Positions 13,030 to 56,836 of a stretch of DNA of 64,000 bases are shown piece by piece. The position numbers were made by a program, and so were the translations under genes. The notes under the pieces are model-generated. The model had not been told where the DNA came from, searched no databases, and saw only the letters and a list, made by a program, of their open reading frames with translations. Numbering within the stretch: position 1 is the stretch's first letter; the number at the start of each line of letters is the position of its first letter. Location: positions 310,001 to 374,000 of IMG/VR virus record IMGVR_UViG_3300036770_003657; one strand, written 5' to 3'. The DNA comes from a virus.

Positions 13030-13058
13030 ATTATATACAGTCTCCAGCATATTGTCAA
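13030..13058 (-). promoter_or_regulatory. Consensus sigma-70 promoter for ncRNA 3
   Basis: TTGACA, 17-bp spacer, TATAAT on the minus strand, both boxes perfect. A palindrome ACTGTA-TTATA-TACAGT (13025-13041) covers the -10 box and could be an operator. Confidence 0.8.
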
Positions 13059-13087
13059 CTATTGCTTTGTTACTCTTTTACAACATC

Positions 13088-13121
13088 TAAAAAAAACCCC
13101 AAGGTGTTTAGTCCTGGGGTC
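13088..13121 (-). terminator. Rho-independent terminator
   Basis: ACCCCAGG pairs with CCTTGGGGT (one bulge) around an 8-nt loop and is followed by eight T on the minus strand. It closes the short transcript from the promoter at 13293-13321. Confidence 0.8.
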
Positions 13122-13144
13122 CTTAAGTTGGATATACTACTATC

Positions 13145-13255
13145 CTACCGGGACCCCCGACAATCTGTATCATTAGCCTTAATCATTGACCAATAGGCTG
13201 GCATTGAGCCTGACTCATGGCGTTGACTAAAACTAAAATAATACTGGGATTTCAT
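13145..13255 (-). CDS. Possible 36-residue small protein
   Basis: The short unit between the consensus promoter at 13293-13321 and the terminator at 13088-13121 contains one reading frame, ATG at 13253-13255, beginning MKSQYYFSFSQRHESGS. An AGGA lies about 14 bases upstream, a little far. If real it would be a strongly expressed early small protein; the unit could equally be a noncoding RNA. Confidence 0.35.
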   Translation of the reverse strand: MKSQYYFSFSQRHESGSMPAYWSMIKANDTDCRGSR

Positions 13256-13292
13256 TTAAACTTTATTTCCTTTGTTACTTACTATGCTTCAC

Positions 13293-13321
13293 ATTATACA
13301 CTTGCTAGTACAAGTTGTCAA
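13293..13321 (-). promoter_or_regulatory. Consensus sigma-70 promoter
   Basis: TTGACA, 17-bp spacer, TATAAT on the minus strand, both boxes perfect. A T4-late-like TATAAATA lies further upstream at 13355-13362. Confidence 0.75.
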
Positions 13322-13408
13322 CAACTTTTGGTGTTGTTTTTCTACTACATCTTGTATTTATACAATTGCTTAATTCATATGCTATTATATGGTGATTTCA
13401 TTGACCTG

Positions 13409-13708
13409 TCAACTATGTTTGAGCATCCAGAACAGAGCCTCACCTTTTTTCCAAAAACCAAAATACCATTCTTGCCTTGTGTCTCGTTGTAGGAAGAATG
13501 CTTCCACCTTACCGTTGGCTCTATGTACTTTGTTATTCATTTCTTCCCACCAATCTGTTTTGTGTAGGAAGTCTGCGTTGAAATATTCGTGTGTCTTAAT
13601 TACTAGAATATCGGCTGGAGGATTGTTAGCATAAAGATTCTTAAACCTTTCTGCTTCGTAGTAAGGTATATGACCTTCTAACCAATCCTGCCAAGCCAAT
13701 ATTTGCAT
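13409..13708 (-). CDS. Hypothetical phage protein
   Basis: 99 residues, rich in Trp and charged residues (QDWLEGHIPYYEAERFKNLY, KTDWWEEMNNKVHRANGK). No membrane segment or motif recognised. It follows the DUF3501 gene by seven bases in the same direction, so it probably belongs to the rubrerythrin operon. Confidence 0.6.
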   Translation of the reverse strand: MQILAWQDWLEGHIPYYEAERFKNLYANNPPADILVIKTHEYFNADFLHKTDWWEEMNNKVHRANGKVEAFFLQRDTRQEWYFGFWKKGEALFWMLKHS

Positions 13709-13715
13709 TCATTAT

Positions 13716-14294
13716 TTAAGCAAAGTCTTTAACTAATTCGTTTCTAACTTCATCTTTAAGTTGAATTTCATAAGGATAAAGATCATGCCCAATCCCTAGG
13801 TATACTTTATTGGCGGAATCCTTAAAATCTATGATTTCACCAGGTTTAAGTTCAAACCTAAGAAAATGAACCGCACTCGTTTTGGAATCTGTGCTACGTT
13901 CGAGATCTTCATCTGCAATTGCATATATACGCTGATGTCCTTGGATTCTTAAAAATACTGTATCTTCAATATTTTTAAGTTGTTCCAATTTCACTTTACG
14001 TAGATCAGGATCCCCGTATTCCAAAGTCATAGTGGCAATAAGATTCATACCGTTTGGTATTAAAGGATTATAAGCATCTAGTTCATCCTTGATACCATTA
14101 GTTGTAAATGTACGCTCAATGAACAACATTTCCTGAACTTGGTACTTTACAGTATCTCTATCTTCAAAAGCCAAAGTACAATTTGGTCCAATTGATACTT
14201 GACGTAGGCGACGATGATCTATAGCACTGCGTCTAAAGTCATCACGAACCTTACTATAATCTTCCAATGTCATTAAATCGTCTTGAGTTAACAT
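13716..14294 (-). CDS. DUF3501-family protein
   Basis: 192 residues. The N-terminus LTQDDLMTLEDYSKVRDDFRR, then RRLRQVSIGPNCTLAFEDRDTVKYQVQEML, the stretch YNPLIPNGMNLIATM, and SKTSAVHFLRFELKPGE follow the pattern of DUF3501. In bacteria this family often stands next to rubrerythrin, exactly as here (11-base gap), and is thought to serve redox or iron metabolism; its biochemistry is unknown. Full length for the family. Confidence 0.72.
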   Translation of the reverse strand: MLTQDDLMTLEDYSKVRDDFRRSAIDHRRLRQVSIGPNCTLAFEDRDTVKYQVQEMLFIERTFTTNGIKDELDAYNPLIPNGMNLIATMTLEYGDPDLRKVKLEQLKNIEDTVFLRIQGHQRIYAIADEDLERSTDSKTSAVHFLRFELKPGEIIDFKDSANKVYLGIGHDLYPYEIQLKDEVRNELVKDFA

Positions 14295-14305
14295 ATCTAA
14301 TCCTA

Positions 14306-14740
14306 TTATTGCTCTGCTTTAAATGCGTCAAGAGTTTTCTTGAACTTACCAGCGTGGCTACGTTCTGCCTTGGCCAATGTTTCAAACCAATCAGCAATCT
14401 CGTCAAAACCTTCATCACGAGCATCACGTGCCATACCTGGGTACATATCTGTGTACTCATGTGTTTCACCAGCAATGGCTGATTCAAGTGCTTCAACAAC
14501 TGTTTTAGCGCTCATACCAGTTTCTGGATCACCGCTTCCACCATTGATCAAATATTCCATATGACCGTGTGCATGACCAGTTTCACCTTCTGCTGTATGA
14601 CGGAAGATTGATGCTACATCTGGTGCACCTGCAATGTCTGCCATGTTTGCGAAATACAAGTATCTACGATTTGCTTTACTTTCACCTGTAAACGCATCCT
14701 TAAGATGCTGTTCTGTTTTACTACCTACTAGTTTAGTCAT
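14306..14740 (-). CDS. rbr: Rubrerythrin-like di-iron protein
   Basis: 144 residues from the ATG at 14738-14740 with GGAGA upstream. A four-helix ferritin-like domain is clear: [44 protein letters not shown] and [12 protein letters not shown] give the two Glu-rich repeats with ExxH. The usual C-terminal rubredoxin domain (two CxxC) is absent, so it is a rubredoxin-less form that would need an external electron donor. Role: peroxide reduction or iron handling. The sigma-70-type promoter at 14771-14799 with an overlapping palindrome suggests early, controlled expression. Confidence 0.85.
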
Positions 14741-14770
14741 TGTTTTCTCCTTGTGTGTATGACGTGTTTT

Positions 14771-14799
14771 ATTGTACATTTATTTAATCTATTAATCAA
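14771..14799 (-). promoter_or_regulatory. Sigma-70 promoter of the rubrerythrin operon
   Basis: TTGATT, 17-bp spacer, TACAAT on the minus strand; TATA-type start about 24 bases before the ribosome site. The -35 region overlaps the palindrome at 14786-14815. Confidence 0.55.
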
Positions 14800-14842: not shown

Positions 14843-15637
14843 TTAAATTTTTTTATAAACAGCAATTACAGTATGCCCAATATCAAAGTTTATATTATGA
14901 TCTTTGATATCATATCTATTCTCATCAAGTAAACTACGATGAAAATCTGCTAGGGGTTCTTCGTATATTTCCACTTGTCTTAGGTCAAACAAGTTGGCAA
15001 TATTAGTCAAACATTGTTTGGTAAATCGTGTAACATGATGTGGAGGATAGTTTAGTGCCCAACCTTCTATATTGCCTAAAAAACCGTCTTCGTTTGGCAC
15101 ACTGAGTATGAGTATACCATTAACTTTTAAACAGCGTAGAGCATTGGATATAAAAGATCGTGTGTCATCTACATGTTCTAATACTTGGAATCCACATATT
15201 ACGTCATATAGGCCTTGATGTTCTTGTATGCTTTGTTTTATTACTTTCGGGTTTTGGCTGTAAGGATCTAGCCCAGTATAATCGGCTTCAACCATTTTAC
15301 CAAAGTAACCCTCTCCGCAGCCAATCTCCAGTATATTGTCATCTGATATGATGTATCTTTTGGCAAAGTCAAATTCTGGTTTGACCAATTGATAGTACCA
15401 AGGAAATGCCTGTAGTTGACTATAGAAGTTTGAACCACCCATAACAGGTGGTTTATAAAACCTAAGATCACAATCCATACATCTGTATAATTCTATATCA
15501 GAGGTAATATCTTCTGTGACATCAACTGGTGTATTATCAAACAAGGGATCTGTTTTATAAGCATTATGTATAAAATCACGGCTATACGTTTTATGTATAG
15601 CTGTGTTACTACTATGACATAAAGGACATTTTTTCAT
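14843..15637 (-). CDS. Class I methyltransferase with N-terminal zinc ribbon
   Basis: 264 residues from the ATG at 15637 (six more codons upstream are possible). N-terminus CPLC...CMDC forms a zinc ribbon, then Rossmann motifs ILEIGCGEGYFGKM (about 105-118), YTGLDPYSQ, VICGFQVLEHVDD and a SVPNEDG strand, the methyltransferase-23 pattern. The ribbon plus this domain is common in sugar C- or O-methyltransferases. It overlaps the start of the next gene by 26 bases. Substrate unknown. Confidence 0.75.
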   Translation of the reverse strand: MKKCPLCHSSNTAIHKTYSRDFIHNAYKTDPLFDNTPVDVTEDITSDIELYRCMDCDLRFYKPPVMGGSNFYSQLQAFPWYYQLVKPEFDFAKRYIISDDNILEIGCGEGYFGKMVEADYTGLDPYSQNPKVIKQSIQEHQGLYDVICGFQVLEHVDDTRSFISNALRCLKVNGILILSVPNEDGFLGNIEGWALNYPPHHVTRFTKQCLTNIANLFDLRQVEIYEEPLADFHRSLLDENRYDIKDHNINFDIGHTVIAVYKKI

Positions 15638-16121
15638 CTTTTTCCATATATTCAAAAAGGTTATTCCAGACTTCTTGTTTTTTCATTTCTTTAATTTCAT
15701 CGTCATATGGATGACTACCATCGAACCTATAGTGATAACGTAGAGCATCAGCACATACTATGTTCTTCTCTACAATATGTCTAAGATCTTCCCTACCACA
15801 GAGTAATCTTTCTCTACATAAGTCTACATTGTCCTGCATGAGATCAACTCCGTAAACTGTAGATAACGCCTGTTCAAAGGTTGAACCATTCTCCATCTTG
15901 CGGATTAAGACTTCGCCAAGGAACTGTCCATCACCGCAAGTAGGGTCCAGGAAAGTTTTGGTAGTATCAGTAAACACTTCTTCGGGTAATTGTGTTAGTA
16001 TTTCTTGAACAAGAGGAGTCGGGGTAAAGACTTCTCCCGTTGCCTTTACCCTTGCCTGTTCTCGCTCTACACCACTCATGTAATCACGGTCGCGGATGTG
16101 ATTGATTATGTCATTTAACAT
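15612..16121 (-). CDS. N6-adenine methyltransferase-like SAM-binding protein without NPPY
   Basis: 169 residues from the ATG at 16119-16121, which overlaps the end of the helicase-methyltransferase gene by 11 bases; the frame is open further but the coupled start fits. Motif X GEVFTPTPLVQEIL, motif I FLDPTCGDGQFL, acidic GVDLMQDNV and ADALRY are those of gamma-class N6-adenine methyltransferases. The catalytic motif IV (N/D-PPY) is missing and the protein ends early. It may be a partner or regulator of the large upstream protein, which has NPPY. Confidence 0.65.
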   Translation of the reverse strand: MLNDIINHIRDRDYMSGVEREQARVKATGEVFTPTPLVQEILTQLPEEVFTDTTKTFLDPTCGDGQFLGEVLIRKMENGSTFEQALSTVYGVDLMQDNVDLCRERLLCGREDLRHIVEKNIVCADALRYHYRFDGSHPYDDEIKEMKKQEVWNNLFEYMEKDEKMSFMS

Positions 16122-19100
16122 TGGCTTCAACATAATCGATTTCATCTTGAGTAAGGCCGAAGTGAGCATATAGTTCTGCGTCAGTCCAAACCTTACTAGC
16201 GAGTTTAGGCAATGATGACAACACTTTTCCATTAAGGAAACCGCTCCATTTACCTGTGTTTACGACAAATTTGTAAAGTTTGCTATTAAGATAACTTAGG
16301 ATATGTTGTGATTCTGCTGAGTTTGTTAAAATATATTGGCATACTTCTGAGGTTCCCAGATTGCCTTCACTATAGAAAGGTTTAAAATAACCACTTGTAG
16401 TCCAAATAATCTTAGACTTTAAAAAGTCTTTTGATTGTTTTTTACAAAATTTTGTTTGAGCATTGGTATGGAATGTTTCATACTTGTAAGTCGTGTCTTT
16501 AGTGTCAGAAAAATTCTTATGCTTATGGTCGCTATGGCACGATGTATCGCAAAGAATATCTAACTTGGGGTGAGTCGAGTTAATTACTTTATCATGTATA
16601 GGAAATGTTTTAGAAAAATTTCTCGGAAGATATTGAAGTCTAGCAAGGTCAACTTCTAGTCCGTCAATCAATGCCGTTGAGGTATTCTTATTTTTTTGCA
16701 TGATCCATGCTGTAAAACTACTACCAACCGTAAAATATTTTCCAACTTCAGTATCAACCCAAATCAGAGAGTTATCTTTAAACATTTTGAGGACTTGACT
16801 GTTTGGGCTCATCCAACTGTCAGGGGTAACAAATGCAATATACCCATCTGTGTTGAGTAGTTCAGATCCTTTGTCAACAAACTTACTCCACAAATTATGA
16901 CTCTTGGGTTGTTTTGTTCCCTTATCATTGTTACCTTGATAAGGAGGATTACCTACAATAACATCAAATTTCATATCAAACTCCAATTCTGTAAAGTCGC
17001 CTTGCATTACTGTGATGCCAGGATACTTGCGTTTAATCTGGTTGCAGAGAAAACTGTATTTGTCATTATACACAATCTTGTCTACAATAGCAACGCCAAA
17101 CATGTCCACAAGCACATCAATCTCCGATCCGTGACCACCTGCTACTACAAGGATCTGACGGCAATGCTTACTTTTGATAAAACGCTTTAGTTCTCTGTTA
17201 CCAAAAATATCAAACCAAAGTTTAAGATCATCTTTGAGAATGGCCAGGGCATTATTCTCAATGTGCTTTTGTTTATTATTATATTTACTCATCCGCACAA
17301 TCATGTCTAGCGTGGAAATCTCTAGACGACTAGCAAGACGCTTGATGGTGCCGGGATACACTCCGTAAAGTTCTGCAAACTCTCGGCTCATTTCTGCATT
17401 GACATCGATGATATCTACACACTCAAGGAAACTTTCACCTTGATAATTGCTCAGGGCCAACACAGTTGTGGCACTTCCGTTGATCATACGGATGGCTTTT
17501 TCTACGATCACCTTAAGAGGATTTTTTTTTGGTCGGCCCGATGCTGTATGACCTGAATCAAAAGTCTTGCCAGTGGCAACGACTTTGTCAATTTTAGATT
17601 TCTCTGCCTTACTTCCAGATGATCGTTTGGCCAATTCGCCAAAGGCTTCGATCTCTTCAGAAGTCAAATCCTCTAGAGTAATGCGAGTATGAGCATTGGC
17701 AATCTCCAACAGTTTATTGTTGTCTTCGAACTGCTTAATAACTTCGTCAGCATCAATCCATTGACCAGAAACCATGTCCTTGATGTTGACACTATTCAAC
17801 ACTTCTCGAACAGCGTCAGGATAGGTTTTTCCTTTTTGTCGAATCAACAGAGCCGCTTCTACTGCTACGCTCATCACAGTATTGCGAGTCTTACTTTGGT
17901 CAAAGGCAAAGTCAAAGATGTGACCAAACTTTTTGCCATAGCCGGGTGTAAGGCAACGACTGTATTTTTGCATGTAAGGATAGACATCGCCACCTTCTTG
18001 CATAAACAAGCAGGCCTGGATCTCAGGAATACTGTAACTGCGAGTGCCCATCATGTTGGTGATCACCAACAGTTTGTTGCGGCCTTCATAGTATCCGTTT
18101 TGCAAGCGGACCAGTTCTTCTTTGGTATCGCCTTCAGAATCTTTGTTGTTGGTGTGATCGCCGTGTAATACTTTTACCTTATGCTCGGGGCAGGCCTTTT
18201 CAATGACTTCGGCAAGTTGGTCCATTGCCAGTTTGGGAATATTAACAAACAGCATAGAATTTTGAATCTCTTCGCCGGCACAGTCACTTATGTTAAATCC
18301 ATAAATTGGCTGGTATCCAAAGATGTCCTGGAATAGTGCAGATATAAATTTCTGCTGGCTCAATGGCTTTGCTAGAATCTTTGTGATGTTAGGCAACAGA
18401 TCCTTATCAAAATCTTCCAGCAGTTTGTTGATGCGGCCGCTGAACAACATATTGTAGAATCTACGCACTACTACATTAGGAATACTTTTATCCTGTTCTA
18501 CCATGCAGTAAGGAACACTAATAATTTCATCGATGGCATTCTTGCCAAACGCCTTGGCTAGTCGACCGATGTTAGTTCCGCTGGCGTTGATTCGCGTTAC
18601 AGTCTTGTTTGCTAGAATGTATTCAACCTTTTCGACTTGACTGTCAGTGTGAGTGCCAAAGTCTGTTTCTTCTAGCAAGGCAATATGTGTGCCAGTAAGT
18701 TTGTTGATCCATTCGTATTTTTCTTCTGCTTCCGGATTCAGACTAACAAACACAACGGGCATCTTACCATCTGCGATAGCCTGTTGATATTGTTGTTCTG
18801 CGTCCGAATCGGCGGCATCAATAAACGTCATGCAAGCAAAATCAATATACTTGCCGATTTCATCTTTGTAAGAAGTCTTAACACTGAGCCCAACGCCGTA
18901 GGCCATAATAAACATCGACTCGTGCCCAAACTCTTCTCGCATGGTTTTTGCAAGGGACAGGAACAAGATAGTTTTACCAATTCGTGCCGCAAGTTCGCAT
19001 ACAAAATTAGTTACGATACCATTTTGGCGAAGAGCAGACAAAACTTTTTTAATAACTAGAATCTGAACTTCTCGCAAATTTGCAGCCTGCTTTACATGAT

Positions 19101-19545
19101 TAGGGTTGAGTTTTGCAGCACATCTGCGGATTTTCTCATTAAGCCAAACACGAATGGGCTCAAAATCTTTGGATTTTAGAAACTGTTTGACGAGCATTTC
19201 TTCTACAGCAATACGAAACACCTCATTCTTTTTGCCTGTGTTTGGGTCCTGTAGTTGAGCCGCAAAGGTTTGGCGGATTTCTTTATGCAGGCTGTAATCG
19301 CTATATCCTGGTGTAGGGATAGAGTCTAACAAGTAATGTTGCCATTTTAGATTTTTGGAACTTGTATGTCCTTCCATTCGACTTGCAATAGTGCTATGTT
19401 CAGCATCTTCGCGTGTCTGCCCTACACCAAATTCTAAAAAGCCAGTAGATAGCATAGCCTCAATTCGGGGTGCAGTAGTATCTATGTAAATTCCTTGGCA
19501 GTCCGTTTTAAGACCAAGTTCTACAGGACTTTTAACATAACTCAT
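16111..19545 (-). CDS. SF2 helicase fused to N6-adenine DNA methyltransferase
   Basis: 1144 residues. Helicase part: Walker A-like LAARIGKTILFLSLAK (near 190), a DExx-like LLEETD, SAT-like NASGTN, and a motif VI-like region QKYSRCLTPG around 520. Then a linker with a GRPKKNP hook, and an adenine-methyltransferase part: SAM strand VVAGGHGSEIDVL, GDFTELEF, and the catalytic VGNPPYQGNN. I see no PD-(D/E)XK or HNH nuclease motif in the first 150 residues. The layout resembles single-chain restriction or modification enzymes with the nuclease absent or unrecognised. It is coupled to a small acidic gene upstream and a second methyltransferase downstream. Confidence 0.75.
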   Translation of the reverse strand: MSYVKSPVELGLKTDCQGIYIDTTAPRIEAMLSTGFLEFGVGQTREDAEHSTIASRMEGHTSSKNLKWQHYLLDSIPTPGYSDYSLHKEIRQTFAAQLQDPNTGKKNEVFRIAVEEMLVKQFLKSKDFEPIRVWLNEKIRRCAAKLNPNHVKQAANLREVQILVIKKVLSALRQNGIVTNFVCELAARIGKTILFLSLAKTMREEFGHESMFIMAYGVGLSVKTSYKDEIGKYIDFACMTFIDAADSDAEQQYQQAIADGKMPVVFVSLNPEAEEKYEWINKLTGTHIALLEETDFGTHTDSQVEKVEYILANKTVTRINASGTNIGRLAKAFGKNAIDEIISVPYCMVEQDKSIPNVVVRRFYNMLFSGRINKLLEDFDKDLLPNITKILAKPLSQQKFISALFQDIFGYQPIYGFNISDCAGEEIQNSMLFVNIPKLAMDQLAEVIEKACPEHKVKVLHGDHTNNKDSEGDTKEELVRLQNGYYEGRNKLLVITNMMGTRSYSIPEIQACLFMQEGGDVYPYMQKYSRCLTPGYGKKFGHIFDFAFDQSKTRNTVMSVAVEAALLIRQKGKTYPDAVREVLNSVNIKDMVSGQWIDADEVIKQFEDNNKLLEIANAHTRITLEDLTSEEIEAFGELAKRSSGSKAEKSKIDKVVATGKTFDSGHTASGRPKKNPLKVIVEKAIRMINGSATTVLALSNYQGESFLECVDIIDVNAEMSREFAELYGVYPGTIKRLASRLEISTLDMIVRMSKYNNKQKHIENNALAILKDDLKLWFDIFGNRELKRFIKSKHCRQILVVAGGHGSEIDVLVDMFGVAIVDKIVYNDKYSFLCNQIKRKYPGITVMQGDFTELEFDMKFDVIVGNPPYQGNNDKGTKQPKSHNLWSKFVDKGSELLNTDGYIAFVTPDSWMSPNSQVLKMFKDNSLIWVDTEVGKYFTVGSSFTAWIMQKNKNTSTALIDGLEVDLARLQYLPRNFSKTFPIHDKVINSTHPKLDILCDTSCHSDHKHKNFSDTKDTTYKYETFHTNAQTKFCKKQSKDFLKSKIIWTTSGYFKPFYSEGNLGTSEVCQYILTNSAESQHILSYLNSKLYKFVVNTGKWSGFLNGKVLSSLPKLASKVWTDAELYAHFGLTQDEIDYVEANVK

Positions 19546-19718
19546 TCTTCATCTCCAAAATCAGCGTTATCAATTTGCTCTTGCCAAAATGCACGAGCAT
19601 CCTTTTCGTTTTCAAAACTTTCCAAAACGTTCATACCACCCAAAGGATGAGGAAACCAAACTAACCAAATTTGGTCATCTTCATCATATGTACAATATAG
19701 TTCTACTGGATCTTCCAT
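19542..19718 (-). CDS. Small acidic protein leading the helicase-methyltransferase operon
   Basis: 58 residues, ATG at 19716-19718; its TGA overlaps the next ATG (ATGA). Strongly acidic (MEDPVELYCTYDEDDQ at the start, NADFGDEE at the end) with a hydrophobic core WLVWFPHPLGG. Placement as first gene behind a perfect sigma-70 promoter means strong early expression. High acidity recalls DNA-mimic anti-restriction proteins, but many small phage proteins are acidic, so the function is open. Confidence 0.65.
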   Translation of the reverse strand: MEDPVELYCTYDEDDQIWLVWFPHPLGGMNVLESFENEKDARAFWQEQIDNADFGDEE

Positions 19719-19724
19719 GTTCGT

Positions 19725-19753
19725 ATTATAGTATAAGTCCTATATGTTGTCAA
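19725..19753 (-). promoter_or_regulatory. Consensus sigma-70 promoter (proximal)
   Basis: TTGACA, 17-bp spacer, TATAAT on the minus strand, both perfect, seven bases before the ATG at 19718. A transcript from here would be nearly leaderless. Confidence 0.75.
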
Positions 19754-19794
19754 GTGTTGCAATATTACTACACAATTTTTGATAAACTGTTTAC

Positions 19795-19809
19795 AATTGT
19801 TTAACAATT
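19795..19809. promoter_or_regulatory. Palindrome between tandem promoters
   Basis: AATTGTT-T-AACAATT, a perfect 15-bp palindrome between two consensus promoters; a candidate operator. Confidence 0.4.
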
Positions 19810-19820
19810 TTCTTGACACA

Positions 19821-19849
19821 ATTATAGTAAATCTTGCTTTACATGTCAA
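19821..19849 (-). promoter_or_regulatory. Consensus sigma-70 promoter (distal)
   Basis: TTGACA, 17-bp spacer, TATAAT on the minus strand, both perfect. It reads in the same direction as the promoter at 19725-19753 and would add a leader of about 100 bases. Confidence 0.75.
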
Positions 19850-43617: not shown

Positions 43618-44502
43618 TTACCATGTAGTAGTATTTTTACCACTATCTCCTATTATTTGTCCAATACTATATGCAGCAGGAGCAGCTACAAATTCCACTG
43701 GATTATTATGATGTTGTGTTACCCAATCTCTTATTCTAGTCCAGTCTTGAAATAAGCTTTGTGTAGTTGTATATGTTCTTTTAGTACCTTTATTAGTCGT
43801 TAATTCGTAGCTATATGTAATTGTGTAAGTTAAATCATTGGTCCAATAATATATTTCAGATTCAGGTCTTGTTGGACATTCAGTTATATCATACTCTGTT
43901 AAAATTCTAGGAGTAGTGTGTGGAGCAGAGTCAGAAGTAGTAGCACTTGATAAATGATCAACATATTTCATTGTTCCAGTCGGTATCATATCATAAAATC
44001 CACTGGCTTCACAATTATCTGCATTGATAGTCAATGTAATATGATCTAAAAATCTTGGGCGTCTTGGCATACTAATATCAGTACATTGTACTTCAATAAT
44101 TTCTTCATCTTCTTCATCATTATACCATAAGTAAGGTATAGGATCATAATCTGGATTTGGTACTTCTCCTGCATAATTGCCATCACCATCATATGCAGCT
44201 ATAGTTTGGGGTAAAAAATGTGCTGGGTTAGGGATATGTGGTGGTTTTACTATTGATGCTCCAACTGTAAAACTAAAATTAGCATAAATTTCTACACTGC
44301 CTCCAGAACCAGACCAATTAAAAGTATTTCTATAGTCATAGCTATAACTAACACTGTCTCCAGGTTTATCATTACTAGAAGGAGTAAATGTTTCTGGAGC
44401 ACGCCACTCTGCTCCATTTTTAAATGGAAAAATAAATGGAAAATCTGTATTAGGTGGAGGAGGTGACTGTATCAGTGTATAGCCATCTATTATCACACTC
44501 AT
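43618..44502 (-). CDS. Baseplate or tail-associated protein
   Basis: 294 residues, beta-rich with many Thr/Ser/Pro (GSVEIYANFSFTVGA, ITYSYELTTNKGTKRTYTTTQ). Pro-rich motif SPPPP at the N-terminus. It sits between the PAAR gene and the giant fibre gene, overlapping the fibre stop by one base, so a baseplate or fibre-attachment role is likely. Family not recognised. Confidence 0.55.
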   Translation of the reverse strand: MSVIIDGYTLIQSPPPPNTDFPFIFPFKNGAEWRAPETFTPSSNDKPGDSVSYSYDYRNTFNWSGSGGSVEIYANFSFTVGASIVKPPHIPNPAHFLPQTIAAYDGDGNYAGEVPNPDYDPIPYLWYNDEEDEEIIEVQCTDISMPRRPRFLDHITLTINADNCEASGFYDMIPTGTMKYVDHLSSATTSDSAPHTTPRILTEYDITECPTRPESEIYYWTNDLTYTITYSYELTTNKGTKRTYTTTQSLFQDWTRIRDWVTQHHNNPVEFVAAPAAYSIGQIIGDSGKNTTTW

Positions 44503-47500
44503 TATAGTCTCCCTACAACTACTTCAATAACGCCTTCATCACCATCAAAATCTTCTAGTGCTTTACCTATTACCATACCCATACGTGGATCATCATGTGC
44601 CTTGGCATAGCCATCTCCTGCACTGACCAACATATCACCTTTGCTTATCTTACCACGTACCTTAACTGGTACACGACCTTGTAGAGCAACTGCTACAACG
44701 TGTTCACCTTCTAGTTCACTGTTCATTAAGTGTGCTGGGTTCTTACTAACTACACCTACTACTTTACGTGTTAAATCTGTACCTATGGTAACTTCATTTA
44801 CTCCACCAATCATTAGAACTGTGCCTTCTTCGTATTTTGCATCAGCAAGATAGTTCTCTGCCAAGTCAGCATATTTTGCTTGTGTAGCTACACCATTGAA
44901 TACAGAAGCATATAATGTATCAGTAGCAGGATTACAGTATATACCACCTGTTCCATAAACACTGTTACCGCTACCCCATAGCATTTGGTATGTAGAATTA
45001 CTATCGTTATTGTAATTGATAGTAACTTGCGAGGAAGTGGAAGCTGAAGCAGCATTACCTGTACAGCTTCCTGAACTTCCACTTACATTACCTGTTACAT
45101 TTCCTGTTAGATTACCAGAAAATGTGGCAGTTATAGTACCTGCACTGAAATTACCACTTGCATCACGTTTGACTAATGTACTTGCTGTATTTGCTGTAGC
45201 ACTTGATACATTAAAGGTAGTTCCACTTAATGAAAGATCGGTTCCGGCACTGTAAGTAGTATTAGTATCTGGATTAGCTGGCATAGTCAATGTTATTGAA
45301 CTAGTTCCTGTGATGTGTCCGTTTGCATCATAAGTAACACTAGGTATTTTAAATGTACCACCAAATGCCAGTGTTCTTGTTGCTCCTCCATCACTTATTG
45401 TACCAGCTGTTACTGAATTACTATGATTAAACGTAGTTCCACTTAGAGATAATCCAGTTCCAGCACTATAGGTAGTATTAGTATCTGGATTAGCTGGCAT
45501 AGTCAATGTAATAGTATTGGTACCAGTAATATGTCCATATGCATCATAAGTAACACTAGGTATTTTAAATGTACCACCAAATGCCAGTGTTCTTGTTGCT
45601 CCACCATCACTTACTGTACCAGCTGTTATTGCACTATTGGCATGCCCTAAAGTTATTGTACCTGCTGTACTTTGATTAGCAGTAAACGTACCGGTACCAG
45701 TTAATCCATTATTACCCTGTACAGTAAGTGTACCATTGCCTATACTGACTGTAGCTGTAGCTACACTAGCAGCAGTAACGTGACCATAACCATCAAACTC
45801 AAAACTAATATCTTGTATAAATGTATTATCACTGTTATCACTGCTTAAATTACCTACACTGCTAGTGTCAGCATGACTTAGTGTAATAGTACCTGCTGTA
45901 CTTTGATTAGCTGTAAATGTACCACTACCAGTTAATCCATTGTTACCCTGTACAGTAAGTGTACCGTTACCTATACTAACTGTGGCAGTAGCTACACTAG
46001 CACTAGTAACGTGTCCAAATCCATCAAAATCAAAACTAATATCTTGTATAAATGTATTACCACTATTATCACTGCTTAAATTACCTACACTGCTAGTGTC
46101 AGCATGAGAAATATTAACAGTGACACCTTCACCACTTCCTGAAATAGTTAACCCACTAGTTCCAGTTTGACTACCTGGAGTTCCAGAACTTACTGCTGCT
46201 ATATAATTACCAGTAGTATCAGTTCCTAGTGCTACACTATCAATTCCAATAGTTGTAGTCATGCTAACATTGTTAGATCCATCAAATGTCACACTACCAC
46301 TAACATCACCAGTTAAGGCAATAGTTCTGGCTGTAGCTAATTTTGTAGCAGTGTCAGCGTTCCCACTCAATCCACCACTTACACTACCTTGGAAAGTTCC
46401 TGCGATAACAGTTGACCCTGCTCCAAATGTCCATTTATCAACACTTTCATCCCATAATAAACTTACGTTGGTATCAGTACCTCTTTCTATTTCTATACCA
46501 GCATTTTGTGTTGGTTCAGCAGTTTCGTTACTATTCAGTACAATGATATTATCAGCTAACTCAATAGTTTCAGTATTGATTGTAGTAGTTGTGCCACTTA
46601 CTGTTAGATTACCACCAATAACAGTATTACCTGTAACGTTAAAGTTTCCACCAACATTAAGGTTTTCAGTTACCGCTACTCCACCAGTAACAATTAAAGT
46701 ACCAGTTGACGTATTTGTACTGGATATATTACCTGCCATTTCAATACGGCCAGTCCCAAATACCTTAAACTTATCTGCACTGGCTAAATTAGTAGGTCCA
46801 CCATAAGTAAAGGCTATGTAGCTGGTAGTATCAGTTACCGTAATAACCTTATCTATAGCCCAATGACTCTTTAGGTTATTATCCTTTACAAACGCACTAC
46901 CATTCCAATTTAAATTAGTTAACCAACTAAATCTATTGGTTGTTCCTACACTAGTAAATCTAGTTTTAAAATCTGTAGTATAAGCACTTTGTAAAGTAAC
47001 ACTAGTTAATGCCCCACTGCCATTGTAGGTAATATTAAAAGTTGGATCATCTATAGTAGGTGCTGCTTTATAAATCACCTGTCCACCAGTAGTAAAGTTA
47101 ATAGTGCTACCATCAGTGGCTTGGAACGTCATGGTGTTACTTGCTGTTAATGTCTTAGCATTAGCCAATGTAAATGTACCTGTGCTGTTGGAAATAGTCA
47201 TTCCATTTACAGTCTTATTGGTCAATGCTTCTGTACCTGCCAATGTAGCCAATGTACCTGTCGTTGGGAAGGTTACACTGGTTGCAGCAGTCATAGTAAA
47301 TGTGCTGGCATATGCTCCTGATGTAGTTAAGTTACCTCCTAAGGTTATAGTCTTTGTACCATTGTTAACACCAGTGCCACCATATGTTGGGCTAATTATG
47401 CTGGCTTGCCAAGTACCTGTACTAATAGTGCCTACTCCAGTTAGACTACTATTGACAACACCTGAACCTAATGTTGTACTACTCAATACATCTACACCGT

Positions 47501-50500
47501 TGATCTTATAAGTTTTACCTGTGGCAAGATCCATGTTCTCACTACTGGTCCAGCTACTTGTAGATTGTATCCAACGGAAAAGTTTATCAGTGGTGCCTTT
47601 TATTGTTATACCACCTCCAGCTGCTGTAGCATCAGTAATTCCACCAGTGTTGAAAACTACAGCCACTCCATTTGGACTAATTTGATCTGGTGGTGTATCA
47701 GCTGTAAACGTAAACAAATTAGCACCATTAATAGCAGTTACTCTTGGATTGGCACCTAATTGACCACCACTTACTCTACTCAATGTCATCCCAGGAATCA
47801 TTCCTGCTGTACTAGCAGTAATTGTAGTTGTCAGTGCTCCAATAGCGGTAAAGTTAATATTGCCACTACGACTTGATATTGGTTCTACTGAGCCTAATTC
47901 AATATTGTTATCATCCATTTGGATGTCATATGCATTAAGAGTGCTGGCAGCACCGGTAATATTAACATTACCATTTACAGTGAGCCCGTTTAAGGTTATG
48001 CTGTCGGTCCAAACTGGACGTTTATTAGCACTGCCTAAACTCACTGGCTGAACATTTAACACAGAATTAGTATCACCTATAGGTAATTTTTGTATTATGG
48101 TGGAGCCACTGGCATATAACATGTCCCCGACAGTATAACTGGCAATATTAGTACCACCCTTATCTACAGGAACTTGACCAATAATATTACTTGGTGTTAG
48201 ATAATATAATCCATCTTGTCCATCTAGAGTACCTGCATCTACTACACCTGATTTAATACCAACAGCACCCTGACTACCTCCGGTACCTACTTCAAATTGA
48301 CTCTTATTAAATGACGCTACACCTAAGTTTGTATGGCCAGGGATATTTGCATTTTCCTGTCCTCCACTGACTACATCCACACCAACAGTAACTTCATTGT
48401 AGAATTCTTGTATGCCTCCAGGTCCTGGATCAAAGAATGGGCCAGTTATAGTAATAGCACTATCAACACTTGGTTTTTTGATCTTTTGTACGGCCTTGGC
48501 CCATGTACTATCGCCTCTTAAAAAGGTGTTACTATTAGCAGTACCAATAGCTAATCTAGTAGTGCTCATTATACCACTAACAATATTAGTTGTATCTATA
48601 TTACTGGCGCTTAGACTACTCCAGTTTTCTGCCAGTATACTAGCATTATCTACAACACCAATAATTTTAATGCTTTGCTTTCTAAAACTAGCAACCCCAG
48701 TACCAGTATTAGTAAAATTAAATGCACCAATAGTAAGACCTAATGTACTGGCCACTGCATCAGCTCTACCTTCATGTATAGTAAAGGTGTTAGTAGTCAC
48801 ACTTCCTACAAAGAATATGCTGTTAGTTAGTATACCGTATGGTGGATCTGCTGCAATAATTTTTACTGCATCACCAGTAGCAAATCCATGATCTGGAATA
48901 TAAACTGTATCTTTGGTGATATCTAATATAGATAATGTTAAAGTTTGATTACCTGCACCAGAGTTAACAATTGTTAACTTGGTTGATAGACTATAAGTTG
49001 TATAAAGTTCAATAGTATCAGCATCAATACTTTTCACATAATAGATGCTATTATTAACAATCCCACCTAATGGTGTTCCAAATCCTGCATTATATTGTAC
49101 AGCATCACCATCATCAAATGGGTGACCAACGATAGTTATACGACTTAGCGCAGTATTAACATTGCCTCCTGAACCTGTACTAGCAGCATTAAATGTAGCA
49201 ACTACAGTACTGTCTAATTGATCAGTTGTTTTCGTTACAACATTTGCATCTTCTGTAAATTCTGGGGCTATACTATTTGCATTAAACTTCAATGCGCCAA
49301 CAATATCAACATACACACGATTTTGTATTTGGCTAACCTTAACACTAAATGCGCTTCCACCTGTACGTCCATTCAAATTTGCATCATTTGCACTGAGTCT
49401 ATCTACTGTGGTATACCCACTTCCACCGGCAGTTAGTACTACATTAGTAACGACTCCACCACTTAGGAACAGGTCTGCCCTAGCTCCAGTTCCTGATCCT
49501 CCTGTTAAAGGCACATCAGTATAAAATCCTGAAGGTGGTTGAGTATATCCACTACCCCCTGCTAATCCTGTTACTGGATCATTGCTATTATCTAGTGCAT
49601 TAGCAACACCTTCTACAATATATTCTATAGTGCCTTGTGCTTGACTATTACTACCTGTTACACTAGTTACTCCTGTAAAATCATAAGTTTGAGTTGGGTC
49701 TAATAGTAATATCTGTTTACTATCTAATTCACTTAAAATGTAATTGGTATTTTGATCTGGAATAATACCTCCTACTAGGGTAGGTGTTAATCCAGTGCTT
49801 GCACCATTAAGAGTTATTTCTCCTACAGTATCAAATGTATCGTCAAAAAATTCACCTAAACTTCCAATGACTACAGTAGTAGAATTATTGCCACCGACTA
49901 CTCGACCAGTTGCTCCAGAACTGGCTTGTAGGATTAAGTCACCATCAACGGCCACTAATACACCATCTAGAGTCAACGATACTCCACTATATGTTTCAAT
50001 GGCTAAATCACCATTTAAAATACTAGTAGGAGGTACTGTATTGACCAAGTTTAGTCTACTACGATATCCATTACTTCTATATACTAAGAAGTTTCTTAAT
50101 GGTGGTATCTGATCAGCACTTAATTTTCCTAGTGCATTTAACTGAGGGATACCACCTGGTTGAGTAGTAGTTGTAAGTTCTTTGTCAATAAAGTCTCCTA
50201 GTCTATTTTCTAAGAAACTTCTAACAGCCAACTGTGTGCTTAATCTATTATGACTTGGTCCGCCTACTTCATTATCACCGAGATCAATATCAGCACTAAA
50301 TTCTTCAATAGTAATATTACCAACAGCCAACTTCAACGCATCTAAAGCAGCAATACTAACAGTGTTTGTAAATTGTACATTACCTGTTTTGTTTTCAGCT
50401 TTAATAAAATCACCAACTTTAAAGTCACCAAGTTCATTGGTTCCTGAACTATATACACGCCCTGGTAATTCACTGACTTGTTCATATTCAACTCTAGTAC

Positions 50501-53500
50501 GTCCACCGTTTTGTGGTAATGCATTATAGTCAGTTCCGCTACCTGCATATTCCCAAGTGTGGCTACTGCTGTTAACAATACTAGGTCTATGCAACCATAT
50601 CTGTTTACTTGGCAGTGTTTCTAAATTGATTAGTTCATTACCACTGGTAGTGGCCAATATCTTAAATGTTGCCGTGTATAAGTTATCTACGTTTTGGACA
50701 TCAGTTACATCAATATTTAAAATAGCAGGGCTACCATTGTCATATTGAATAACAGTATCTAAGGTAAAGTTATTTCTAATAAAATTTTCCCCAACTAATA
50801 CTTTTTCTACGCTAACAACTAGGCTTCGTGTTGTTGGATCCCAACTGAATATATATGCTCTATTTGGTGTTATACCACTGGTTGTACCTTCGATTACTCT
50901 ACCTGGAATAAATGTATAACTTTGTCCTATAGGAGGAGGTTCTACTTGTAATTTTTGATATACAACGTGACTTTCAGTGAGATCATCAATAAAAAATTCT
51001 TTAATATTCTTTAATAAAAGATGTTCACCTGTTGGTAGTGGAGCAGTAAATTTTGCCTTTATTTCAAAACCATCGTCCAAATATAATTCAAATTGATTGG
51101 CATTTAAAATTTTAATTACATAAGTTTGTTCGTCATAAAGACCTTTAATTAAACTATTTCCATTAGCTCTATAAACTATTTTCTCTGTATTTTGAAAACC
51201 GTGAGCAGGAATTGTTATGACATTAGTATTGACATTTATAACTGGTTCGATTTGTGCAGGACTAGTTCCTGGAATGGTGACATTATTACTTGGTGTAAAA
51301 GGTACCTGATCATCCACCTGTTTGTAACTATTAGTTACATCTCCAATATTACTATAGTCAACTATTTCTGGAACATTAATGATACTGTCAATAATATCTA
51401 TAATGATATCAAATAAATCACCAACTCTACTCTGTGCATCAGGATGTACTAGCGCAATAGTTAACGATTTTAGTTCTTGGAAGGCAGCAATATTTTGAGT
51501 TCTTTGATTTATTAGAGCTGCCACAGTGCTTGTAGAATAGGCTACACCAGCTTCAACGCTTTTACTATTGCCTCCTGTTAGTACATCATATGCTACTGCC
51601 TCTAATACTAGTAAAGTATCTCTTCTACAAGTATCTTGATCATATGTAAATCCTGTATAATATGGCGCTGTGTTGGCAGTTACTTGGCTGTCAATCCAAG
51701 TTATTAGTGCATCTCTTAATTCTTCTTTGTTATTTAAAATTGTACTATATGTTTCTCTATATACAGGATTTCTAAATCTTATTACATAGTGCTGTACTGG
51801 TAGGTCCCCAAAACCAATAGCAGTAATAGTTTGTTGTGCTCCTGCGCTGCCTGTAGCAACTACAATACCTTTATTAAAATCAAAAGCATTAGGACTATAA
51901 CCATTGGCCCTTAAAGCAAATTGACCAAAGTTAGTAGCACTATTGGTAATACTTAGATATCCACCGCTTTGACAATAACTACCATTTAAACAGAAGATCT
52001 GGAAACAGCTAACAATCTGTGCATATGCATCATTAATAACACGATATCCTGTACCCCCAAAGCTCAACATAGTAAATGCATTACCTACCATTGATTTACC
52101 TTGTTGCGGAGCAGGTCCTTCTACTGGGTTCTCTGCTTCAATTTGATTAACAGGTATATTTGGTGTACGTACTTTACTACCATCAACCAATACACCATTA
52201 CCACCTAAGAAGCTGATTATACTACAGTTCTGCACATATGGGCTAATACTAATAACTGGTTTATTATTTGGTAGTCTAGTATATCCTACACGACTACATT
52301 CTGGATCAGCTGGATCATCAAACGCCACTGCATAGTCAAATGTAAAGCTAGGTATATTGTTTACATCCAGTGCATCTCTGAAAGTTATCTCTGTAAAATA
52401 ACAGCCATTACGTACACGTAGCATATCCTTACCAGCATTAAGTGGTCTAATATTACAGGCACGTAGACCAGCTCCTACTACACTAACGTTATCTGGAATA
52501 ATAATTGGATTATCTTCGTAATAGTCTCCACTAGCAACTGCTATAACAATACGCTTTTCGTTTGGAATGTAGTCAGCAACAAAAGCTACAGTTTCGGTTT
52601 GAATGATTTCCTTGTCTGCTAGTAATGCTGCTCTAGCATCACTCTTAGTTGGACTTATTGGTGTAGCATTAGGATATTCTGTATTTGGTGCTTGACTGGG
52701 TCCTTGATCTATAATTGTTACTACATATCCTAAAAGTTCCTGAGCTTTATCTATGGCAGCACTGCTGGCTGGATCTCCTACACCAAATGCGTTGAGATCA
52801 TTTTCTAATACTAAATTGATTATTTCTTCTTTCAAATATCTATATGTTATTGCACTGGCTTGTCTATCATTGAATATAGGTAATCCCATTCCATAACTAA
52901 AATATTTTTTAGCAGCATCTATAGTTTGACTATTGCCACCATACATTAGGTCATAGGCTAAACTGTAGACTAGATATCTTATATCACGAGCGCACTTTTC
53001 TTCATTATAAGTAAAGTTATTAAACTCAACAGTAATAAATTGACTTACTCCAGTAATAATAGCAGCTTTGTTTTCCTGTATCAGTCCAAAATTAAGTTGC
53101 GTTGTTGGATTAGCCGAACTAATGTCTGGAAATACTTTATTGTTTAAAGAACTAGTATTTTCATCTGTAATAACATCAATGATTATATCAACTAAATCTT
53201 GGCATTTGATAGTTTGTTCAGAATTAGTAGCAGGATATAATGAAGTATCTTGTGTAAGAAGATTGGTACTAGATTTAGTAATTGGTACTGCGTTAACAAT
53301 ATCACCAATAATCTCTTGTAGTCTTGTATATGCTGCTAGTGTTTGTGCCTTCTCACCAGCACCTAATTGTAGCACGGCTCCAAATATATAAGCTTCTGCA
53401 TTAGAATAGGTTGCACTATTACCGCCATATAATACATCGTATGTTATAGCATCAACTATAAATTCTACATCACGTCTACATTTATCTATTATACTTCCTG

Positions 53501-56500
53501 GGGTGCTGGCATATGATGGATAAGTATCAATTAACCAAGCAATGACTTCCTCTCTAATAAATGCTTTATTTGTTTGTAATTGATTTTTAGCATTTAAAAC
53601 TGCAACTTCTGCATTACTGGGATCAGTGAAAGACACTGCATCAATAGCAGGATAACCTTCCTCAAGAAAATCAATTATTTCCTGTACTTTATTTTTATAG
53701 CTTAAGAAGAATGTGCCACTGGTTACATATTGTTCACTTTCTCTGTATAATTGTTTTAATGCTGCTGCTGTCTGTATCTTTTGATTATAGAAAGTGCCTA
53801 ATTGATTCTGTCTATCATAACTATATTGATTTTGTCTAGTATTTAAGTTAGTTCCCAGTACTATGTCATATATAGCTCCTTCAATGACTAGACTCATATC
53901 TCTTTCACATTTGGTTACTGTGGGGCCAGTATAACTAAATCCTAAAAATGTATTATTGACATAGTTAGTACCTTGATCAACTATATATTCAATATTATCT
54001 AATAATAAGTCTTTGGCATTGACATAACCTACTGGCAATCCTGCAGGAGTTGGCATAGTAATTGCAGGTAATATTGTAGGTATTTTAGCAATACCATCTC
54101 CAGTACCAGGTACAGCGGCTACAAAGGTATCTCCTACTGTATAAGATTCACCAGTAGTACCAGCTACAGCGTTCCAATCAGTGCTTCCTAATACTTCAAT
54201 TTCATACGTAATACCCGCAACTAAATCTGTTACAGGATATGATACATCAACTACGTTGATTAAGTCACCAGCATATGTATTCGCCAGTATGTTTGTAATA
54301 CTTTGAATACTGGCAGCTACTTCAGTTGCCTCAGTTCCACTTTGAGTATCTACAGCCTTTAACAATAGATAGTTTAAAGCTCTAATGGTAATATCTTTTT
54401 GACTAATTAGTACTGCACTGGCTGTGGCATTGCTATAGGTAAATCCTGCCTTTACGCTTTGCCAATTACTGCCATAGATAAGATCATATCCAATAGCATC
54501 AATAATTAAACCAACATCTCTAAAACAAGTTTGATCATTAAATTCATTTCTTTGTTTATAGACTAAATTACTGGCTATTTGTAGGGCACGTTTAATAGTT
54601 TTTACTGGTTTATTAATGCCATCAAAATTATCATCACCATTAGTTGCACTAACAGCTACTTGTCCACCACCAAATAAATCAGCACTAACAAATTCTAATT
54701 TATTTCCATCTCGATTAAGTGATAATATTGATCCATCTACACCTAAAACTCTTGGAAATGTTAATGTATAACTGTTTACAAACTCTTCCGGTGTTGTTCC
54801 TGCTGGGGCACGTAATCCTACATAGTTATTGCCGTTTGAAGTTAACTCTTTTAATCTAATCTCGCCTTGATTATTAACATTAAGACCGTCAGTGTTGATT
54901 AAGGTAGATCTTATTGTAGATGGAGTTGTCTCACCTATCCTAGTATTATCAATAGTTCCACTGTTGATATCTACGTTGGCTAATGTGCTAGTGCCATCTA
55001 CAGTAAGATCTTCAGCAATATACACATTGTTGTTTACTGTAATATTATTTACTGTAATATCATCTAATAACAAACTGCCTAAAGTTGCTTGGCCAGTAAC
55101 ATCGAGGTCACCACCAATATTAACATTACCAGTAGTATCAAGTGTATTGGCATCAATGTTATCAGCATTTATATCATTACTTGTTATTGTGCCTGTGAAA
55201 TTACTAGTACCAGTAACATCTAGATTGCCACCTACATGTAAGTTTTCGCTTATTCCTACACCACCTGTTACTACGACGGTTCCAGTAGTTGTATCGGTAG
55301 AACCTATATTAGCCTTTGCATATACCTGTCCATCTAAATTAGTCTCTAAATTAACTGTTAAGTTTTCAATAGTAGCATTATCAAGTACATCTAATATATC
55401 AGTTTCTATATTAGTGGCATCAACGTCACCAGTCAAATCACCTGTAACATCACCTGTAACATTACCAGTATACATAGCATCGGTACCTGTAGTACCTCTA
55501 TCCAATATTACAGTTTCAGTGACTACACCACCAGTGTCCTTATAAAGAATAATATCTGTGTATGCTTTTGCATCAAACCCATTAGTACCATTTTCAAAAA
55601 CTTTTACACTTACATTTTCAGCAAATATATCACCAGTGCTTGGTCCAATAATAGTACCTTCAAACTCACCAATAAATCTTTCAGTGGCTTCGATTATTGT
55701 TCCTGTTATGGCTCTAGGTTCTTCTGCTCCAATTACAGTGGCATCAATATTCCCACCATTTATATCAACTTGATCTAACCTACTAAGCCCATAACTGGTT
55801 ATATTACCACTTACCTTACCGATAAACTCAGCTTCTACATAACCTGAATCTAAGGGTGCTCCACCTGTACCATTCTCCAATACTTTTGTAATACCATCTT
55901 CAGCATAGATATCACCAGCAAAATTTCCGCTTATGCTACCTTCAACATTACCATAGAATACAGGTGGTTGATAACTTAATACATTTGTTGGGCCACCTGT
56001 TCCATTATCTAATATTTTAGTAGTGCCATCAGCAGCATATAAATCACCAACTACATTACCTTCTAGTTTACCAACAAATTTTACACTGGCAGTAATTACA
56101 GTTCCTGTGATTAAGGTAGGACCGCTATTACCAATTATAGTGCTGTTAATAAATCCACCGTTTAATAACAAACTACTTATTTGACTGGTTCCAGTAGTTT
56201 GAGTTATTCGACCTAACAATTCACCTGTAAAAGTTGCATCTGTTCCATTGGTGCCATTCTCTAAAACTTTTACTCCACTATCGCTATAAATATCACCAAA
56301 AACATCACCAAACAAGTTACCAGTAATATTGCCTTGAATGTTAGCTAGAATTTCTTCTTCTACATTTATACTATTGGCTACTATATCGCCAGCTACATTA
56401 AGATCGCCTCCAATACCTACTCCACCAGATACAATCAATGTTCCTGTATATGGGTCTAAACTAGGCGTATTATCAGAAAGTATTGTTTTAACATTAACAG

Positions 56501-56786: not shown

Positions 56787-56836
56787 TATTGTCTCCAACT
56801 GTAGTTTGGAGATAGCCTCCAAACCGCCCATAATAG

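What the first reader, a model, noticed from the sequence alone, without database searches (positions are those of the whole stretch)
15612..19849. Acidic protein, helicase-methyltransferase and NPPY-less methyltransferase in one early operon
Two tandem perfect sigma-70 promoters with a palindrome between them drive a 58-residue acidic protein, a 1144-residue SF2 helicase-N6A methyltransferase and a second SAM-binding protein lacking catalytic NPPY, all coupled by overlaps. No nuclease motif is visible. It may be a self-modification or anti-restriction system, or a defence system that blocks rather than cuts; the acidic protein may be a DNA mimic that controls it.
Basis: partly seen in the sequence, partly recalled or inferred. 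Interest (0 to 1): 0.68.

Follow-up and report, generated by a model that had tools for sequence, protein, structure and literature searches.

The report
Phage restriction-modification enzyme with hidden nuclease

Summary
The 1144-residue protein begins with a divergent GIY-YIG (T5orf172-type) nuclease domain. Directly it scores below Pfam's cut-off (12.8 bits, cut-off 20), but a profile of homologues with the window's clade left out gives 20.2 bits (E 2.7e-8; 0 of 18,000 shuffles), with Y20, G42, R56 and E108 kept. An SF2 motor, an m6A methyltransferase (NPPY) and a swapped target-recognition domain follow (26% identity to L008 where the rest is 80-95%). This is the layout of a single-chain Type ISP enzyme, with GIY-YIG instead of Mrr. 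The NPPY-less protein is a conserved partner: 21 phage loci, and 42 bacterial/archaeal triads with an NPPY subunit whose own SAM motif is degenerate. The acidic protein is conserved in the operon (6 of 7 orthologues); in 36 other viral loci methyltransferase-motif genes are five times denser within 2.5 kb of it than farther away. Best reading: a cutting, ATP-dependent phage R-M system, a fused member of a class annotated but, as far as found, uncharacterised in cyanophages. Function was not tested; structure prediction was inconclusive.

The parts
19821..19849 (-). distal perfect sigma-70 promoter (TTGACA-17-TATAAT)
   Evidence: one of six perfect promoters in the window
19795..19809 (.). palindrome AATTGTTAAACAATT between the promoters (possible operator; not conserved in relatives)
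19725..19753 (-). proximal perfect sigma-70 promoter; a perfect or near-perfect promoter at this position is common upstream of the acidic ORF in relatives
   Evidence: 12/12 in 17 of 41 acidic loci against 2.6% of control stretches
19542..19718 (-). 58-aa acidic protein (pI 4.05, charge about -15), member of a viral small-protein family linked to R-M genes
16111..19545 (-). 1144-aa single-chain nuclease-helicase-methyltransferase-TRD protein (HelMT)
19141..19545 (-). aa 1-135: divergent GIY-YIG (T5orf172-type) nuclease domain, Y20, G42, R56, E108
17626..19068 (-). aa 160-640: SF2 helicase-like motor (AARIGKT, EETD, ASGT, YSRC motifs)
   Evidence: ResIII/Helicase_C in homologues
17176..17625 (-). 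aa 641-790: linker, position of the coupler in Type ISP enzymes (inferred)
   Evidence: inference from order
16894..17175 (-). aa 791-884: gamma-class m6A methyltransferase core with NPPY and a degenerate motif I (VVAGGHGSE)
   Evidence: Pfam Eco57I E=2e-16
16201..16893 (-). aa 885-1115: target-recognition domain, swapped between relatives
   Evidence: 22-26% identity to L005/L006/L008 but 87-96% to L002/L004
15612..16133 (-). MT2: NPPY-less N6_Mtase protein with intact motif X (EVFTP) and motif I (DPTCGDGQFL); longest ORF runs from 16232

Best explanation
The operon encodes a phage-borne, ATP-dependent restriction-modification system that cuts. HelMT is one chain: GIY-YIG nuclease, SF2 DNA motor, linker, m6A methyltransferase and exchangeable target-recognition domain. 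The TRD finds the recognition site. If the site is unmethylated the motor is engaged and the N-terminal nuclease cuts; if methylated it is left alone. MT2 is the dedicated second methyltransferase subunit: it carries intact SAM-binding motifs while HelMT carries NPPY and a degenerate SAM motif, so the two most likely form one working methyltransferase. The acidic protein is made first from strong promoters and is associated with phage R-M systems of several types; its likeliest role is to restrain or time the nuclease until the phage's own DNA is methylated. Probable use: destroying competing phage or host DNA. Shown here: the genes, domain order, homology, conservation of nuclease residues, TRD swapping, conserved gene partnership and R-M linkage of the acidic family. 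Inferred: that the nuclease cuts, that MT2 and HelMT form a complex, and what the acidic protein does.
For: GIY-YIG: invariant GIY, FGxG, R, H, E in the clade; Pfam T5orf172 sub-threshold at matching coordinates in 3 of 4 members; homologues have clear T5orf172 (36.2 and 38.1 bits) before ResIII helicases; profiles without the window's clade score it 17.2 and 20.2 bits, 0 of 18,000 shuffles; the 23%-identical homologue in LR756508 is co-linear and keeps G40, G42, R56 and E108. Motor: ResIII/Helicase_C in homologues. Methyltransferase: Eco57I E=2e-16. TRD swapping. MT2 partnership: 21 phage loci; 54 of 57 classified prokaryote MT2 homologues lack NPPY and 42 triads have MT2, an NPPY subunit and a T5orf172-helicase; MT2 and HelMT match complementary parts of PF02384 and are its only matches in the 400-kb record. 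Acidic protein.
Against: Pfam T5orf172 is below its cut-off for the window protein itself; a profile of bacterial N-termini alone, and one of the L043-type phage relatives, do not single out the clade. AlphaFold2 gave no confident fold (pLDDT 45 and 55) and Foldseek no meaningful match, so the nuclease rests on sequence. The YIG tyrosine is F39, so activity may be reduced. The similar locus dnmA-yeeB-yeeC of B. subtilis showed no restriction in tests (PMC9973331). Many acidic loci (16 of 36) have no methyltransferase-motif ORF within 2.5 kb.
Confidence: 0.68

Rival explanations
1. Self-modification / anti-restriction: the methyltransferase protects phage DNA from host enzymes, the helicase only scans, and the N-terminal domain is a dead nuclease remnant.
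For: Orphan methyltransferases are common in phages (general knowledge); dnmA-yeeB-yeeC of B. subtilis acts as an orphan methyltransferase (PMC9973331); F39 replaces the YIG tyrosine.
Against: Y20, R56, H87 and E108 are invariant in the seven-member clade although this region is its second most variable after the TRD; an orphan methyltransferase does not need a conserved nuclease-motor unit.
Confidence: 0.17
2. Defence that blocks without cutting (BREX- or DISARM-like).
For: Helicase plus methyltransferase; weak PglX and DrmMI matches in PADLOC.
Against: Those matches cover only the NPPY region; an N-terminal nuclease domain is present; no other BREX or DISARM gene was noticed, although the whole genome was not scanned for them.
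Confidence: 0.05
3. Same enzyme, different target: an early phage weapon that degrades the unmethylated host chromosome rather than competitors (a rival on biological role, not on mechanism).
For: Strong promoters of early type before the operon; T4 and others degrade host DNA (general knowledge).
Against: TRD swapping between close relatives fits an arms race with varied DNA better than one fixed host; nothing here tells the targets apart.
Confidence: 0.2
4. The acidic protein is a general phage early protein with its own promoter that has no functional tie to restriction (a rival on this one part).
For: 16 of 36 acidic loci have no methyltransferase-motif ORF within 2.5 kb; an acidic ORF follows, rather than precedes, the R-M genes in several loci; in one R-M orthologue it is absent (L005).
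Against: Methyltransferase-motif ORFs are 5 times denser within 2.5 kb than at 2.5-6 kb (19 v 4, p=0.0009); several methyltransferase families and a REase_II are involved.
Confidence: 0.4

Closest known systems
Cyanophage genes annotated 'type II restriction-modification system restriction subunit' (S-CAM7 gp055-gp057; MA01 WVQ00382, fused 1074 aa) and the unannotated equivalent in ACG-2014f (Syn7803C24_51-53)
   Same: Nuclease-like N-terminus, SF2 helicase, NPPY methyltransferase and a small NPPY-less MT2 next to it; MA01 is fused like the window protein.
   Different: Only 22-29% identity over the matched parts; no acidic protein was found in the annotated phage collection; known to me only as automatic annotation, no functional study found.
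Type ISP restriction-modification enzymes (LlaGI, LlaBIII)
   Same: Single chain in the order nuclease, SF2 motor, linker, gamma m6A methyltransferase, TRD; conserved core with variable TRD (PMC4872093).
   Different: Nuclease is GIY-YIG-like, not Mrr; the chain is shorter (1144 v about 1578); a separate NPPY-less subunit is conserved; LlaBIII/LlaGI did not come up in the solved-structure sequence search.
dnmA-yeeB-yeeC (Bacillus subtilis; Vibrio crassostreae homologues affect phage sensitivity)
   Same: m6A methyltransferase, SF2 helicase and T5orf172/GIY-YIG protein as one locus (PMC9973331).
   Different: Three genes; MmeI-like methyltransferase; no MT2 described; B. subtilis version inactive in tests.
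Bacterial and archaeal triads MT2 - NPPY methyltransferase - T5orf172 helicase (found here, L117-L171)
   Same: Same three components in 42 loci, with NPPY-less MT2 and T5orf172 N-termini.
   Different: Separate genes (about 225, 515 and 845 aa); NPPY subunit has motif I DPxxK(S/T)GVF; not named in any paper found in the held library.
Phage P1 DarB and BREX PglX
   Same: Large phage or defence proteins with an m6A methyltransferase (and, in DarB, a helicase).
   Different: Only the NPPY region of PglX models matches; DarB is recalled from general knowledge and was not compared.

Membership tests
GIY-YIG nuclease, T5orf172 family (PF10544) | Profile score over the Pfam cut-off | tested here: not met
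   12.8-13.0 bits, cut-off 20, in 3 of 4 members; homologues L083 (36.2) and NatCom (38.1) are over it
GIY-YIG nuclease, T5orf172 family (PF10544) | GIY tyrosine, YIG glycine, catalytic Arg and Glu in order | tested here: met
   Y20, G42, R56 invariant in 18 aligned sequences; E108 shifted by one column; YIG tyrosine is F39
GIY-YIG nuclease, T5orf172 family (PF10544) | Homology shown through intermediates | tested here: met
   20.2 bits, E 2.7e-8, 0 of 18,000 shuffles; 17.2 bits
GIY-YIG nuclease, T5orf172 family (PF10544) | GIY-YIG fold | tested here: inconclusive
   pLDDT 44.8 and 54.7; Foldseek uninformative
Type ISP restriction-modification | Single chain nuclease - SF2 - coupler - gamma MTase - TRD | tested here: met
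   order; coupler inferred from position only
Type ISP restriction-modification | Mrr-family PD-(D/E)XK nuclease at the N-terminus | tested here: not met
   the N-terminus is GIY-YIG-like
Type ISP restriction-modification | Translocation-coupled cleavage on collision of two enzymes | not testable with these tools
   needs biochemistry
Restriction-modification system (general) | Methyltransferase, nuclease and variable recognition domain in one unit | tested here: met
Restriction-modification system (general) | Unmethylated sites are cut, methylated sites spared | not testable with these tools
   needs biochemistry or methylome
BREX / DISARM | PglX or DrmMI homology over the whole protein with the other system genes | tested here: not met
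   only the NPPY region matches; other genes of these systems were not searched for genome-wide
MT2 as a complete DNA methyltransferase | Catalytic [DNS]PP[YFW] motif | tested here: not met
   absent in 21 phage loci and 54 of 57 prokaryote loci
DNA-mimic protein (acidic ORF) | DNA-like charge pattern on a solved or modelled fold | not tested

The most novel reading that the evidence does not exclude
A class of ATP-dependent R-M systems, shared by phages, bacteria and archaea, in which the m6A methyltransferase is built from two complementary half-defective subunits: MT2 with intact SAM motifs X and I but no NPPY, and an NPPY-TRD subunit (fused to the GIY-YIG-helicase in the window phage) whose SAM motif is degenerate. 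One MT2 could then serve several exchangeable NPPY-TRD modules. In phages, a small acidic protein acts as a common safety catch for R-M systems of many types.
Probability: 0.3. Interest if true: 0.8.

Novelty: new variant of a known kind. Interest (0 to 1): 0.6.

Why it matters
It would make phages carriers of a compact, cutting, motor-driven R-M system whose specificity is changed by swapping one domain, and would explain genes now annotated only as 'restriction subunit' and 'hypothetical protein' in cultured cyanophages. The NPPY-less partner poses a directly testable question: why two methyltransferase subunits with complementary defects are kept together across phages, bacteria and archaea. 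The acidic protein gives a handle for finding phage-borne R-M systems whose nucleases are too diverged to recognise, and may be a general inhibitor of them.

Tried and rejected
AlphaFold2 of residues 1-160 with 7 sequences and of 1-133 with 18 sequences: low confidence; Foldseek of the second model: RRM and ribosomal noise. Solved-structure sequence search with the N-terminal profile: nothing. Direct profile-profile comparison (with the LR756508 N-terminus, and with nine T5/ICP1 T5orf172 proteins): no signal, profile too shallow. A profile of the L043-type relatives alone and one of the bacterial N-termini alone did not single out the window's clade; only mixed profiles did. Bacterial homologues of the full-length protein by pattern scan: none; they appeared only through MT2. 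HicB-like fold for the acidic protein (idea from the sequence pattern): no Pfam support. Operator palindrome as a conserved regulator: not conserved. Acidic protein in annotated phage and plasmid collections: none. Silent TRD cassettes in the window's own genome: only one Eco57I match in 400 kb. The downstream class I methyltransferase, rubrerythrin and DUF3501 genes are not part of the system: not conserved with it.
Full report
What is there. The window is bases 310001-374000 of a 399,796-base virus record. On its minus strand the operon is as described: two perfect sigma-70 promoters (19849-19821 and 19753-19725) with a 15-bp palindrome between them, a 58-aa acidic ORF (19718-19542), an 1144-aa ORF (19545-16111) overlapping it by ATGA, and an NPPY-less SAM-binding ORF ending at 15612. 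Perfect promoters are not special to this operon: the window has six, all on this strand.

Conservation. Seven viral loci in IMG/VR encode orthologues of the 1144-aa protein (66-86% identity). The acidic ORF is syntenic and translationally coupled in six of them (not L005), the NPPY-less ORF in every locus long enough to show it. The class I methyltransferase, rubrerythrin and DUF3501 genes farther downstream are not conserved with the operon.

The hidden nuclease. In the clade alignment residues 1-135 keep GIY (18-20), FGxG (39-42), R56, H87 and E108, the order of a GIY-YIG nuclease. Pfam's T5orf172 model hits the right stretch in three of four members but below cut-off (12.8-13.0 bits against 20). 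A scan with an alignment that includes a 23%-identical co-linear homologue from LR756508 brought in distant relatives, and the acidic-protein scan brought in L083. Several of these helicases carry recognisable T5orf172 N-termini: L083 scores 36.2 bits for T5orf172 and 61.4 for ResIII, phage NatCom_35866 38.1 bits. A profile of six such N-termini, without any member of the window's clade, scores the window 17.2 bits (E 2.3e-7) and all seven clade members above every one of 18,000 shuffled sequences; adding a sample of bacterial N-termini raises this to 20.2 bits, E 2.7e-8. Profiles built from only the L043-type relatives or only the bacterial N-termini did not single out the clade. Structure prediction did not help: two AlphaFold2 runs gave pLDDT 45 and 55, and Foldseek nothing meaningful. 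The nuclease assignment therefore rests on sequence, motif order and position, not on a fold.

The rest of the chain. Residues 160-640 hold SF2 motifs (AARIGKT, EETD, ASGT, YSRC) and the homologous region is ResIII/Helicase_C in relatives. The C-terminal part is an Eco57I-type methyltransferase with NPPY (2e-16). Residues 885-1110 behave as an exchangeable target-recognition domain: against L008 the helicase, linker and methyltransferase core are 88-95% identical but this region 26%; against L004 it is 96%. This order, nuclease - SF2 motor - linker - gamma m6A methyltransferase - TRD, is that of single-chain Type ISP enzymes (PMC4872093), except that their nuclease is of the Mrr family.

MT2, the NPPY-less protein. 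It has intact motif X (FTP or HTP in 21 of 21 phage loci) and a motif I match in 20 of 21, and no NPPY. PF02384 matches MT2 at profile positions 20-99 and HelMT at 121-190, and these are its only matches in the 400-kb record. Its NPPY partners often have a degenerate or missing motif I: VVAGGHGSE in the window clade, GDPTGST in S-CAM7, none recognisable in L041, L085, L087 and L096; L083, L061 and L095 keep one. Some loci have ORFs that begin at motif IV itself (MKFDIVVGNPPY; L009, L014, L039, L040). A scan of prokaryote genomes with MT2 found 58 loci; 54 of the 57 that could be classified lack NPPY. In 42 loci MT2 is followed by an NPPY subunit of about 515 aa and a helicase of about 845 aa; all 42 middle genes carry NPPY, nearly all show motif I as DPxxK(S/T)GVF with lysine in place of the first glycine, and all 42 helicase N-termini match the T5orf172 profiles. 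The partnership is shown; that the two form one enzyme, with SAM bound by MT2 or MT2 acting as a regulator, is inference.

The same system elsewhere. In phages the components occur unfused (L083, L095, L049, L051), with MT2 first (L039, L040, LR756508), with the helicase split between its RecA domains (L061, L077, L107, L054), or fused (window clade; cyanophage MA01, 1074 aa). Cultured cyanophage S-CAM7 and ACG-2014f carry it as three genes, annotated in S-CAM7 as restriction subunit, DNA methyltransferase and hypothetical protein. The nearest studied bacterial locus is dnmA-yeeB-yeeC, where the V. crassostreae version affects phage sensitivity and the B. subtilis version appears inactive (PMC9973331). 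I found no paper in the held library that describes the MT2-containing triad; absence there does not show that it is undescribed.

The acidic protein. It has 50 relatives among viral contigs, many more than HelMT, and none in the annotated phage or plasmid collections. The family is 53-61 aa with mean charge -11.5 (42 members); its near-invariant VWFPHPLGG core is partly an effect of the search patterns. In 36 non-redundant loci, 20 have a methyltransferase-motif ORF within 2.5 kb, and such ORFs are five times denser within 2.5 kb than at 2.5-6 kb (19 against 4 by motif position, p 0.0009). Pfam confirms N6_N4, D12, Eco57I and N6_Mtase families among them, PADLOC a REase_II in L101, and L083, L095 and L061 carry the GIY-YIG-helicase system itself. 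A perfect promoter lies within 130 bp upstream in 17 of 41 loci against 2.6% of control stretches. It is thus a promoter-led small gene that travels with phage R-M systems of several kinds. A role as inhibitor or timer of the nuclease is the simplest reading, not a demonstrated one.

Judgement. This is a cutting, ATP-dependent R-M system as far as sequence can show, a fused variant of a kind already present in phages and prokaryotes. What is new here is the nuclease assignment, the conserved NPPY-less partner with complementary motif loss, and the acidic family's link to phage R-M systems.

Noticed in passing
L039:7854-9890; L040:7854-13490; L056, L057; L009:9998-10831: Extra ORFs that begin at or just before methyltransferase motif IV (MKFDIVVGNPPY) with different C-terminal TRDs lie beside full-length copies; they look like silent TRD cassettes or expressed half-methyltransferases.
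   Followed up: partly
L077:7060-7189, L107:5137-5288, also L061, L054, L039: The nuclease-helicase gene is split between the two RecA domains at similar places in several loci; in L077 and L107 a promoter-like sequence sits in the gap, so these look like natural two-gene forms rather than frameshift errors.
   Followed up: partly
L060, L073, L078, L079, L084, L089, L093, L094: Unassigned 190-310 aa proteins between the acidic ORF and a DNA methyltransferase; by position they are candidate restriction endonucleases of unknown family (no Pfam match, no PADLOC match for those scanned; L078 and L084 resemble L060).
   Followed up: partly
L009:11003-11773, L014:2078-2854: A 256-258 aa protein (no Pfam match for the L009 copy) lies between the methyltransferase genes and MT2 in the LR756508-type loci; possibly another nuclease.
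   Followed up: no
L009:16250-18103: A 617-aa N6_N4 methyltransferase with a LAGLIDADG-like insertion, probably an intein.
   Followed up: no
window 13716-14779: Rubrerythrin and DUF3501 genes lie downstream of the operon in the phage; a rubrerythrin-like gene is also near the operon in L006 (14684-15043).
   Followed up: no
window 13058-13412: Three further perfect sigma-70 promoters within 360 bases on the - strand in a stretch without clear genes.
   Followed up: no
window 44502-56831: A 4109-aa ORF, containing a DPPY-like motif that is probably a chance match; not analysed.
   Followed up: no
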